From Pyrenophora tritici-repentis (lineage: Eukaryota > Ascomycota > Dothideomycetes > Pleosporales > Pleosporaceae), in NCBI RefSeq assembly GCF_003171515.1, contig NC_089399.1:2046001-2110000 (forward strand): a stretch of 64,000 nt of DNA, read 5' to 3'. Each line of letters starts with the position of its first letter. Position 1 is the stretch's first letter. This document shows positions 41,327 to 44,430 of the stretch, one piece after another. Below the pieces are notes generated by a model. That model was not told the DNA's origin and ran no database searches. It saw only the letters and a list, made by a program, of their open reading frames with translations. A program made the translations under genes and the position numbers.

Positions 41327-41506
41327 TGTTACGAACCTGTGGGAAGGGGCACGGCGGTTAAGTTAAGGAGCGTCGGCGGGATAGCTGACCCCTCCATATG
41401 TGACACGGGAACTTAATCACGTGACCTCCTCGGCTTGGCATGCACGAGGAAAAGTCTTGGCACACCCCTCGTACATACGCCACCGAGGAGTGCTTACGCT
41501 GGCAAA

Positions 41507-41645
41507 TGGGTCGGGGTGTGGTTGGGGTTGGGTTAGAAATTTTGCGACCCCAACCCAACCCCAACCCATTTGTCAGCGCCAAGCTTAGGGTTGGGTTGGG
41601 GTTGGGTTGGGGTCGCACGGACCATGGGTTAGGGTTGGGTTATAG
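41507..41645. repeat. left subterminal telomere-like repeat block
   Basis: Many GGGTTGGG/CCCCAACCC units with GGTCGCACGGACCATGGG. The mirror-image block lies at 43908-44070. Probable transposase-binding array. Confidence 0.8.
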
Positions 41646-41806
41646 TAAAAAAATTGCAAGATGTATAATATAGATTTCAATAAAAGAAAAGTTTATATAG
41701 TATCACAGTAGATTAACACAGTGTAGCATTAACTAGTTTCATTTATAATATACAGAGGCTTCGCCAGCTAGCATTTAAGCACGTGTATCTAGATATATCT
41801 TATAAT

Positions 41807-42379
41807 CTAGAGAAAAGCTAGTAACTCGCGCGCAAAGTAGCGCCTAGCCAATTGAGAATCCTTCTCTTGAATAGTAACCCTCTTTGCGTGAATAGCATTG
41901 ATGTTGCAGTCTATAAAAGTTATTAAATGAAAAATAGTATAGGGTAGATAGACTATACCCTCAAAATAACCAACTAAGAAAGCTTCTGTAGCTTCCTGAA
42001 GAGCTTCGATTGCAGATCGTTGAAAGCGGATATCGGCCTTGTGCACCTGTGCAAATTCGCGCACTACGCGGGAAAAGGGGAGTTTTCGCAAGAGTAGTTC
42101 AAAACCTCTCTGGTATCTCTTGATTTCCCGTAATGCGACAGCTAAGCTAAATTAGAAAATAGCTGTGATAAACGACTGTGATAACCTACTGCCTGCCTTA
42201 AACTTGCGCTTCTTCTTAACAGCTACAGGTGCCTTTCGCGTAGACTTTCCTGCTACTTGACGTCTAGCCTTACTAGCAAGGGCCTTCTGAGCCGGCTTGC
42301 CGCCAGTAACTGTCTTGCCATCAGGACCACCCCGGCCGGCTTTACCGGTGACCTTAGGCCGTGGTTTTGTCCTTGCCAT
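41807..42379 (-). CDS. transposon-borne histone H3-like protein
   Basis: 158 residues in three exons: 42379-42190, 42141-41959 and 41910-41807. Both introns are 48 bp with GT-AG ends and a CTAAT or TAATAAC branch site. Intron 1 splices exactly inside the conserved GTVALRE block. The histone fold is collinear with H3: KAGTVALREIKRYQ, LLLRKLPFSRVVREFAQ, IRFQRSAIEALQEATEAFLV, INAIHAKRVTIQEKDSQLAR. The tail starts MARTKPRPKVTGK and keeps GGKPAQKALASKARR, like the canonical GGK...LASKA stretch, but is about 20 residues longer and lacks ARKS. The C-terminus (YFARELLAFL) differs from RIRGERA. No CENP-A-type longer loop 1. Intact splicing and frame suggest selection. Confidence 0.9.
42142..42189 (-). 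other. intron 1 of the H3-like gene, introner-like
   Basis: 48 bp containing TTATCACAG twice. It resembles the introns at 43001-43042 and 43385-43436 of the neighbouring gene in its 5' half. Confidence 0.75.
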
Positions 42380-42889
42380 TGCGTAGTAGAGTAGATGATG
42401 AACGTAGGCGACGTATGTGATTAATTACTGTGATAAATGTGGTCGACAATTAAGAAAGTAGTAGGCTGAAAGAGTTAGGTAGCTGGAAAGTTTGGGCGAC
42501 GGCAATTTCCCGATTTCCGCACTAGTAAAGGCAGCAGCGCACGGACTGCATGACGTAATTTGCTGTTTCACGATCGCATACAACCATTTCTGTTGCAAAA
42601 TCAGTAGCGAGCATATCATACAAACGTGTTAAACTGCTGTGATAAACGCCGAGCTCGCGCATGCGTACAGCCCAAAAATGAAGGAATCATCGATGTGTTG
42701 ATCATTTTGGGTAATTTCCGCGTTTTCGCGCTAGCGCAGGCAGCAGCGCACGGACCATTTCTAGGTGAGCATAATGCTGTCTACCCATTTCTCCAGCCCC
42801 TGACGCCCAGTAACTCCCAACACCTAATAACTCTCTTTACTACATTGAAAACACCCCATTTACAACAGCGCATTATCACAGTCCCCGCC

Positions 42890-43810
42890 ATGCCTGTCGC
42901 GAAAGAGCAAGTCGGCGACGTACCTGAAGGCCTAGTTCCAGCCATCAAACTTGAACCTCCGCCTGGGTTCGAACAAGATGAGTGGGAGCAGCTTACCGAT
43001 GTAATAATCACAGCCATTTATCACAGCTTATGCTAATATAAGCAGGGATTTGCGTGTGAAGCTGACGAGATTGACGGTATCTTAGATCAAAGAGGTAGTG
43101 GGGTTCACGAAAAGGCCGACCTATCAATTTGAGCGTCCCCTATACTGGCTCTCTGAGTGGTAGCGCCCGTGCTATTGCTCAACGTGAACGCAAAGCTCTT
43201 TTCGATAAAGAGGAGAAGGTACTTGAAAGCGTTAGAACAGCCGACCGCTCCGCGAAGTACCAACTGAAGAAATCGCTTTTGCAACAGCCTAAGTATAAAT
43301 TAGCAAATAGTGCTAGACAGGCTAAGCTGCTAGAGAAAGAGTGGGATATACTTTCAGAGAAGCGGTTTACCCAGAAAAAGTCTGGTAAGTTATCACAGCT
43401 GTTTATCATAGACATCTGCTAATAGACTATCCCAAGTGGCGAAGGATATACTAGCAATACCAATTGCTCAGGTTGGGGTTGAAAGAGTTTTCAATGTTGC
43501 TAAGGATGTTATTGGTAGTCGGAGGCACCGACTATCTGCCCGGACAATACAGCAGATAATGGTTCTTAAGGATACAATATCTCAAGAGGAAGAACAGGGT
43601 CTAGACTACCTAGTTGCTCAATTAGGGGAGGATGGAGAGCCAATTGACGAGGTTAATGATCTTTTTGAGCTTCCAGCCTCGTTAGAGCATACCTTCGATA
43701 TAGATGAGGAGAACCAGACTACAGAAGAAGAGTCGGAGGAAGAGGTCCAGGAGGAGCGTCAATTGCCACCTCGAAAGCGCCAGCGTCCTCAGCGCTACCG
43801 TGATAATTAG
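42890..43810 (+). pseudogene. truncated hAT transposase-like gene
   Basis: ATG 42890 (MPVAKEQVGDVPEGLVPAIK) runs to 43000. An intron of 42 bp (43001-43042) follows, then QGFACEADEIDGILDQR. A lysine/glutamate-rich helical stretch at 43165-43384 and an intron 43385-43436 lead to the C-terminal hAT dimerisation block VAKDILAIPIAQVGVERVF, NVAKDVIGSRRHRLSART. It ends in an acidic tail and PPRKRQRPQRYRDN. I could not join the second and third exons in frame. No RNase H-fold catalytic core is visible, so this is either internally deleted or a derived dimerisation-only protein. Confidence 0.6.
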
Positions 43811-43907
43811 CTGTGTTAATATATCTCGTTTTATGTATCTAATATATCATCAACGTGTACACATTATCTTAATTAAGTGTTGTTCCGTTAAAGTACCCAA
43901 AAAATAT

Positions 43908-44070
43908 AACCCAACCCCAACCCAACCCAACCCAACCCAAGCCCAACCCTACCACTTGGTCTGTGCGACCCCAGCCCAGCCCTAACCCATGGTCTGTGCG
44001 ACCCCAACCCAACCCTAACCCATGGTCTGTGCGACCCCAACCCAACCCCAACCCAAGACTGGGTATACCC
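43908..44070. repeat. right subterminal telomere-like repeat block
   Basis: Repeated CCCAACCC units and three copies of GGTCTGTGCGACCCC, two of them within CCATGGTCTGTGCGACCCC, inverted relative to the left block. Confidence 0.82.
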
Positions 44071-44430
44071 AACCCATTTGCCAGCGTAGGAGTGCTCCTC
44101 GCGCGTCAGCCACCGAGGAATCCTCGGACTCCTCTGAGCGAGGACAGCGAGCACCATAGGTATATAGCATTAGGCAATGAGCTCCTATAGCTCATTGTGT
44201 TCAACTTCGAAATCTAAGGATTAGTACTTGATTCTCAACTCCCCGTATATTACATCGATCTACCAATCGTGCTATACACCCTCGTGTCCATCGCATCACT
44301 CTATCCCCGAGAACCAACCCAAGATCATCTTCGGACGACCTTCACATTTGTATACAAGTACTACTATATCCACAAAATTATCGACGCTGGCGGTAGTGGT
44401 TTGTTTTGTCGGCCGGGCAAGCCAGTCTCC

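What the first reader, a model, noticed from the sequence alone, without database searches (positions are those of the whole stretch)
41495..44088. A hAT transposon carries a spliced, intact-looking histone H3-like gene
Seen: perfect 17-bp inverted ends, a perfect 8-bp duplication inside a Gypsy LTR, and between them on the minus strand three exons that join exactly in frame to a 158-aa H3 relative covering the whole histone fold. Known: DNA transposons can capture host gene pieces, but those are usually fragments, and I know of no described hAT element with a complete core histone gene. Inference: the element may use its own H3 to alter chromatin on itself or at target sites.
Basis: partly seen in the sequence, partly recalled or inferred. 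Interest (0 to 1): 0.92.

Follow-up and report, generated by a model that had tools for sequence, protein, structure and literature searches.

The report
Jumping gene carrying its own histone
A mobile DNA element that matches one first described in 2013 in a wheat-infecting fungus carries an intact gene for an unusual relative of the DNA-packaging protein histone H3; related proteins in other fungi suggest that the gene is likely an old, selected part of the element, which would matter because the element may use it to keep its own copies from being silenced.

Summary
Window 41495-44088 matches the short, non-autonomous form of the hAT transposon that Manning et al. (2013) reported in Pyrenophora tritici-repentis, with its histone H3-like gene (H3L). 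This genome has 31 spans with exact 17-bp ends (15 short, 11 long, 5 rearranged). All 31 carry H3L; 30 of 33 gene copies encode the full 158 residues.

Four results go beyond what I read of the papers. (1) H3L is no recent copy of the host gene: its fold matches host H3 at 62 of 86 residues, and its two introns lie at other positions. It groups with H3-like proteins of other Pleosporales. (2) In P. teres, relatives of H3L and of the element's acidic "central" protein have consecutive locus tags. (3) H3L-like proteins show strong site-specific constraint. (4) The long form holds 11 rigid paired sites, TTATCACAG-N4-TTATCACAG (exact or near); 43 of 44 exact genomic pairs are in this family.

Likely mechanism (inferred): H3L, helped by the acidic protein, builds silencing-resistant chromatin on the element; five of seven H3L-like proteins lack lysine 9. 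A passenger under drift is not excluded.

The parts
41487..41494 (.). left copy of the 8-bp target-site duplication GGAGTGCT
41495..44088 (.). short, non-autonomous hAT element (2594 bp)
   Evidence: exact ends; 15 short forms of 2574-2606 bp in this genome
41495..41511 (+). left 17-bp terminal inverted repeat TACGCTGGCAAATGGGT
41512..41646 (.). G-rich subterminal repeats (GGGTTGGGGTTGGG type)
41700..41721 (+). paired site (left subterminal, 1 mismatch in each half)
41807..41910 (-). H3L exon 3 with stop
41911..41958 (-). H3L intron 2 (48 bp, no paired site)
41959..42141 (-). H3L exon 2
42142..42189 (-). H3L intron 1 (48 bp); holds a perfect TTATCACAG-N4-TTATCACAG pair at 42163-42184
42190..42379 (-). 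H3L exon 1 with start codon
42380..42889 (.). stretch between the divergent H3L and chimeric genes, probably both promoters
   Evidence: gene positions; promoter role inferred
42415..42436 (-). paired site upstream of H3L
42860..42881 (+). paired site just upstream of the chimeric gene's ATG
42890..43810 (+). chimeric gene: N-terminal part of the central ORF fused to the hAT dimerisation region; 274 aa in 13 of 15 short copies, ended after 65 aa in this copy and in L019 by a G run one base shorter
   Evidence: chimera published
43005..43026 (+). paired site in chimera intron 1
43390..43411 (+). paired site in chimera intron 2
43425..43430 (+). GACTAT, the junction of the internal deletion that made the short form
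   Evidence: reported in PMC3538342
43798..43819 (-). paired site across the stop codon of the dimerisation region (right subterminal)
44072..44088 (-). right 17-bp terminal inverted repeat
44089..44096 (.). right copy of the 8-bp target-site duplication

Best explanation
The window holds a short, non-autonomous copy of an already described hAT transposon that carries an intact three-exon gene for a histone H3-like protein (H3L), which is likely an old and selected part of the transposon and is predicted to build silencing-resistant chromatin on the element. Shown by sequence: 31 exact-end spans, H3L in all of them, three genes in the long form (H3L, an acidic 'central' protein, the transposase), the short form as an internal deletion, and 11 rigid paired sites in the long form. 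Inferred: the central protein, with its strongly acidic tail, acts as a chaperone for H3L; a factor made by the element binds the paired sites and marks the element as the place of deposition; nucleosomes with H3L, which has no lysine at position 9, would escape methylation there and so keep the element's genes readable. The short forms would still feed H3L to the whole family in trans.
For: Element and copies. H3L is far from host H3 (62 of 86 fold residues) and host CenH3 (60 of 86), while host H3 equals Venturia and Penicillium H3 at 86 of 86. Seven H3L-like proteins form one clade, support 99/97. H3L and central-protein relatives of P. teres bear consecutive locus tags, CFE70_001393 and CFE70_001394, and both records list a longest contig of 5,608,903 bases. 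Central-protein relatives in P. teres, P. seminiperda, three further genera and one unnamed record (38-64% identity); net charge -21 to -36 in the last 90 residues of all 7 aligned rows. Site constraint: log-likelihood gain of 65 for one parameter; 53 of 138 columns invariant against a mean of 22.5 and a maximum of 36 in 200 equal-rate simulations. Lysine 9 present in 2 of 7 (alignments). Paired sites: 11 at a spacing of 13, none at the 21 other spacings from 9 to 30. ESTs for H3L, and transcripts that suggest the chimera is expressed, are reported in PMC3538342.
Against: No binding, deposition or silencing data exist here. The Ptr central protein has no Pfam family above its cut-off, one of 7 relatives matches Elongin A weakly (E 0.0032), and there is no solved relative or fold match; an acidic tail is weak evidence for a chaperone. 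The seven H3L-like rows were picked after I saw the shared marks, which favours their clade, and one of them (P0065) has a long branch. For five of the seven I do not know whether the gene lies in a transposon; Dhillon et al. scanned protein sets of Alternaria, Bipolaris and Setosphaeria and their Fig. 9 legend says species outside their clade lack the hAT-H3 amplification. H3L of Ptr and P. teres has a lysine one place before position 9, which may stand in for it; lysine 27 is missing only in the Ptr protein. One old copy shows heavy RIP, so the family is not immune. 134-bp derivatives move without H3L in cis.
Confidence: 0.3

Rival explanations
1. Passenger: H3L was captured from some host H3 and is carried along under drift; it has no role, and its high intactness only reflects a recent burst. 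This is close to the published reading.
For: Copies of the burst are near identical: ten of 11 long copies have 2-9 substitutions against the column majority, and 30 of 33 H3L genes are intact with very few changes, so intactness here says little about selection. In a substitution-only simulation 20% of 2000 neutral runs keep an open frame at the Ptr-P. teres divergence. Manning et al. wrote that the genes may have undergone drift.
Against: Relatives with the same marks in other genera, site-specific constraint, and a second gene of the same element apparently beside H3L in P. teres.
Confidence: 0.3
2. Trans-acting anti-silencing factor: H3L enters chromatin all over the host genome and weakens heterochromatin or repeat recognition, helping this and other transposons; the element itself is not specially targeted.
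For: Lysine 9 is absent in 5 of 7 H3L-like proteins; many intact copies would give a high dose; short forms that lost most of the transposase keep an intact H3L in 15 of 15.
Against: One copy of the family shows typical RIP (183 of 725 CpA sites against 9 of 853 CpT); genome-wide incorporation should be costly to the host; the element-specific paired sites are unexplained.
Confidence: 0.2
3. Part of the transposition complex: H3L and the central protein package the excised element or mark the target rather than affect transcription.
For: They share the element with the transposase, and the chimera fuses the central protein to the transposase dimerisation region.
Against: 134-bp derivatives with only the ends have perfect duplications (7 of 7). 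The 21 of 31 perfect 8-bp duplications look unlike each other by eye, so no target mark is apparent.
Confidence: 0.1
4. The paired sites are host GATA-type or other host regulatory sites and H3L is only a marker; regulation of the element is by the host.
For: CTGTGATAA contains GATAA, the core of fungal GATA factor sites (recalled).
Against: The exact pair occurs 44 times in the genome, 43 of them in copies of this element.
Confidence: 0.07

Closest known systems
H3L-carrying hAT of Pyrenophora tritici-repentis (Manning et al. 2013, G3, PMC3538342; section 20 part 1 of 2 and passages read)
   Same: Two forms with H3L, a central ORF and a hAT transposase; GACTAT junction; in-frame chimera; H3L matching neither H3 nor CenH3; nearly the same protein in records of this species (P0001, P0002 at 99%). 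I hold the window element to be a member.
   Different: The paper gives lengths of about 5.6 and 2.3 kb and 10 + 16 copies; here 5.84-5.88 and 2.57-2.61 kb, 11 + 15 plus 5 rearranged. The text I read does not describe the paired sites, 134-bp derivatives of this family, or relatives in P. teres and other genera.
H3-carrying hAT of Pseudocercospora, Cercospora and Sphaerulina (Dhillon et al. 2019, Mobile DNA, PMC6710886; abstract, background, results and part 1 of 2 of the discussion read)
   Same: A hAT with 8-bp duplications and H3-like sequence, amplified to hundreds of copies.
   Different: About 9.5 kb in P. fijiensis; all extra copies broken by RIP; H3 without introns; the paper reports no similarity of its hAT consensus to the Ptr element and treats the Ptr event as recent and independent.
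Repeat R25 of Stagonospora nodorum (Hane and Oliver 2010, PMC3017866; passages read)
   Same: A RIP-damaged repeat with weak DNA-transposon similarity and a stretch whose listed hit is a P. tritici-repentis histone H3.
   Different: The authors classed it as a presumably endogenous gene region; its sequence was not examined here.
Canonical H3 and CenH3
   Same: Histone fold (PF00125).
   Different: 24 of 86 fold differences to host H3; lysine 9 and lysine 27 absent in the Ptr protein; aromatic C-terminal extension; lacks the loop insertion seen in the host CenH3 (the CenH3 label is mine, by eye).
Pack-MULE type transduplication in plants (recalled, and as cited in PMC3538342 and PMC6710886)
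   Same: A DNA transposon carries host-derived coding sequence.
   Different: Usually fragments of many genes; here one whole gene, apparently kept across species.

Membership tests
hAT superfamily | 8-bp target-site duplication | tested here: met
   Window copy perfect; 21 of 31 spans perfect, the other 10 with 2-7 mismatches, four of them explained by inversions between copies
hAT superfamily | short terminal inverted repeats | tested here: met
   17 bp perfect
hAT superfamily | C-terminal dimerisation region in the transposase | tested here: met
   PF05699, E 2.4e-20, residues 690-771 of 848 in the long form; the window keeps only the C-terminal part
hAT superfamily | DDE catalytic residues and zinc finger | tested here: inconclusive
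   Candidate residues seen by eye against recalled motifs; PF14372 only at E 0.041
Ptr H3L transposon (Manning et al. 2013) | long and short forms with H3L, central ORF and GACTAT junction | tested here: met
Mycosphaerellaceae H3 hAT (Dhillon et al. 2019) | DNA or transposase similarity to those elements | not tested
Histone H3 | core histone fold domain | tested here: met
   PF00125 E 9.4e-32; 176 distinct solved sequences at E up to 0.001, best an H3.2. The own structure model was too weak to use (mean pLDDT 54.8)
Canonical H3 | near invariant fold and tail | tested here: not met
   62 of 86 identical in the fold; tail with an insert
CenH3 | groups with the host CenH3 and has its loop insertion | tested here: not met
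   60 of 86; insertion absent; H3L outside the CenH3 branch (one CenH3 row only)
Histone chaperones (central protein) | known chaperone domain or fold | tested here: not met
   Ptr protein: no Pfam family above its cut-off; no solved relative (one chance-level hit at E 0.52); no fold match at E up to 0.001 (model mean pLDDT 64.7). The works-like claim rests on the acidic tail alone
Introner-like elements | homologous introns spread over host genes | tested here: inconclusive
   6 of 7 introns of the element share the pair, but 5 of 11 pairs lie outside introns and 43 of 44 exact genomic pairs are in this element; diverged host introns were not searched

The most novel reading that the evidence does not exclude
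A eukaryotic DNA transposon that runs its own chromatin: it encodes its own H3 variant without lysine 9, a dedicated acidic chaperone, and an element-specific paired operator in almost every non-coding segment that directs H3L nucleosomes to its own copies, so that it writes a silencing-proof chromatin state on itself. The H3L-central pair is an old module carried by transposons across the Pleosporales, not a recent capture.
Probability: 0.12. Interest if true: 0.92.

Novelty: already known. Interest (0 to 1): 0.52.

Why it matters
The element itself has been in print since 2013, where H3L was seen as a captured gene that may be drifting. The evidence here turns that into a testable question: do some transposons keep a histone variant as a working part? 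If so, this would be a mobile element shaping its own nucleosomes instead of only evading host silencing, and would give a natural tool to separate H3K9 methylation from other silencing steps in fungi. If not, the same tests would show how a whole histone gene can ride along for long times without harm. The paired site and the central protein give direct handles for experiments.

Tried and rejected
Recent capture of the host H3 gene: rejected as the simplest view. The single intron seen in host H3 lies in the codon of Q19, those of host CenH3 at other places; the H3L introns lie in the codons of T45 and D106 (canonical numbering). The fold differs at 24 of 86 residues while canonical H3 is nearly frozen.

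CenH3 origin: H3L shares ALQEATEAFLV with host CenH3, but overall identity is not higher (60 against 62 of 86) and the tree does not join them.

Selection inside the burst: too few changes to measure. Open-frame survival as proof of selection: only moderate, 20% of neutral runs pass.

Paired site as a requirement for transposition: not favoured, since the seven complete 134-bp derivatives (L053-L059) do not show it in their printed sequences. Two of the nine places fetched were dropped: L060 has one end only and L061 is not clearly related. The one pair outside the family lies in L051, whose frames look like a pogo-type transposase by eye; taken as chance.

Searches that gave nothing: central protein in viral contigs, 600 pattern matches and no relative; the H3L-profile search was swamped by tandem H3 proteins and its 120 listed rows gave no new H3L-like protein; fold of the central protein; own model of H3L too weak to use.

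Papers: searches. Opened: PMC3538342, PMC6710886, PMC3017866 (parts named under Closest known systems) and PMC3562529 (two passages; an H3 gene near a Copia element, not relevant). PMC8616336 and PMC4994206 were seen in listings only. That the relatives in P. teres and other genera, the paired sites and the small derivatives are unpublished is claimed only for these searches and for the text I read; supplements could not be opened. One search for the site sequence returned 392 papers with 12 listed; none of these 12 titles concerns fungal transposons.
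Full report
What is there. The element at 41495-44088 has perfect 17-bp inverted ends and a perfect 8-bp duplication. The joined flanks are found at full score over 218 bases in 14 other places of the genome, so the insertion boundaries are exact and the target is a repeat, by its layout in the window of LTR type. On the minus strand three exons join to a 158-residue histone H3-like protein that matches the core histone family at E 9.4e-32. On the + strand lies a chimeric gene (central ORF N-terminus plus hAT dimerisation region), frameshifted in this copy and in L019, and open with 274 residues in the other 13 of 15 short copies.

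Identity. Protein records 99% identical to H3L come from Pyrenophora tritici-repentis, and the element agrees in anatomy with the two forms described by Manning et al. 2013.

Copies. The exact end pattern occurs 31 times in each direction, giving 31 spans: 15 short (2574-2606 bp), 11 long (5840-5882 bp), and 5 rearranged, of which L032 and L039 each hold two short copies face to face with slightly changed inner ends. All 31 carry H3L. One search gave 34 matched stretches; two of them, in L029, are pieces of one interrupted gene, so there are 33 genes, of which 30 encode 158 residues. The exceptions are L010 (RIP), L025 (one deleted base) and L029. The PF00125 search also gave 33 H3L hits, all inside these spans (its counts are lower bounds). 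Of the 11 long copies, 5 have an open 848-residue transposase as they stand. L010 is an older copy with 279 substitutions, 228 of them C to T or G to A; CpA sites changed in 183 of 725 cases against 9 of 853 CpT, the signature of repeat-induced point mutation.

Origin of H3L. The single intron seen in host H3 lies in the codon of Q19, those of the host CenH3 (my label, by eye) at other places, and those of H3L in the codons of T45 and D106 (canonical numbering). In the fold H3L equals host H3 at 62 and host CenH3 at 60 of 86 residues, while host H3 equals Venturia and Penicillium H3 at 86 of 86. Among the listed hits, six other proteins share its marks (N at position 110, Y at 130, an aromatic residue at 131): P. 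teres, Paraphoma, Alternaria, Massariosphaeria and two from unnamed jgi/lgn records. With these seven against nine canonical H3 and one CenH3, they form one clade at 99/97. I chose them after seeing the marks, and dropped P0094 (a shortened P. teres gene model) and the further Ptr records; the search scored only 7,992 candidates and listed 120, so the family is surely undersampled. P0065 has a long branch.

Constraint. On the seven rows a model with unequal site rates gains 65 log-likelihood units for one parameter (shape 0.49), and 53 of 138 columns are invariant against a mean of 22.5 and a maximum of 36 in 200 equal-rate simulations. This argues against pure drift after the split, but it cannot say whether every row is a transposon gene. 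Dhillon et al. scanned protein sets of several Pleosporales and report the amplification only in their own clade and in Ptr, which fits low copy numbers elsewhere or genes outside transposons. Lysine 9 is kept in 2 of 7 rows (P0067, P0069) and lysine 27 in 6 of 7, all but the Ptr protein (alignments); Ptr and P. teres have a lysine one place before position 9, which weakens the argument somewhat.

Central protein. It is 354-355 residues depending on the splice, mostly helical in a model of modest confidence (mean pLDDT 64.7), without a family above its cut-off, a solved relative or a fold match. Relatives: P. teres, P. seminiperda, Bipolaris, Exserohilum, Parastagonospora and one unnamed record; all seven aligned rows end in a strongly acidic stretch, net charge -21 to -36 in the last 90 residues. 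A chaperone role is inferred from this alone.

Paired site. TTATCACAG occurs exactly 11 times in the long copy L014 against a mean of 0.07 and a maximum of 1 in 200 shuffles. Allowing up to 3 mismatches over both halves there are 11 pairs, all at a distance of exactly 13 bases, none at the 21 other distances tested; two exact single sites have no partner. L022 and L033 also have 11, the RIP-hit L010 8, the window copy 7; the rest of the window has none at 13 and one at any distance from 9 to 30. In L014 six pairs lie in six of the seven introns, four in other non-coding segments, and one across the transposase stop codon; the two outermost point in opposite directions. Of 44 exact pairs in the genome 42 lie in the 31 spans, one in a truncated copy (L050) and one elsewhere.

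Small derivatives. Seven complete 134-bp palindromic elements, with ends that differ at one or two bases from those of the long form, have perfect 8-bp duplications (7 of 7) and no paired site. They show that neither H3L nor the site is needed in cis, if the same transposase moves them (inferred from the ends).

Mechanism. Shown: gene content, copy structure, distance from host H3, site constraint. Inferred, in order of falling confidence: H3L has been a functional part of the element lineage; it makes nucleosomes that lack a methylatable lysine 9; the acidic protein loads it; the paired sites direct loading to the element. The marked positions 107-110 and 130-131 lie near the H3-H3' contact (recalled structure), which might favour H3L-H3L pairing.

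Verdict. The core finding is correct but published. What is new, if it holds, is that H3L looks like an old working part and not a recent passenger, and that the element has a regular site system of its own.

Noticed in passing
L018/L019 (C4) and L029/L030 (C6): The 8-bp flanks of these neighbouring copies are exchanged in inverted form, as expected if recombination between copies inverted the about 2.9-kb and 28-kb stretches between them. L012, L025, L035 and L038 also have unlike flanks, a hint of further rearrangements at copies of this element.
   Followed up: partly
L053-L059: A 134-bp palindromic family with nearly the same ends (TACGCTGGTAAATGGGT) and perfect 8-bp duplications; one lies 149 bp from the end of the long copy L025 (C5) and one about 1.2 kb from L022.
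   Followed up: partly
window 39653, 40494, 41335: Repeat copies start at steps of about 841 bp; the H3L element sits in the last one. A stretch with frames of 521 and 1167 codons, flanked by the same repeat, precedes it.
   Followed up: no
contig C18 (35 kb) and C7 around 1128000-1135000: The same pair of face-to-face short copies is found on C7 and, reversed, on the small contig C18, with matching flanks; probably an assembly duplicate.
   Followed up: no
copies L017, L025, L035: The same early frameshift of the transposase (43 residues) in three long copies; shared descent or a sequencing error in a G run.
   Followed up: no
L029 (C6): An 8630-bp span whose H3L gene is in two pieces about 6 kb apart in the locus, so something inserted into it.
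   Followed up: no
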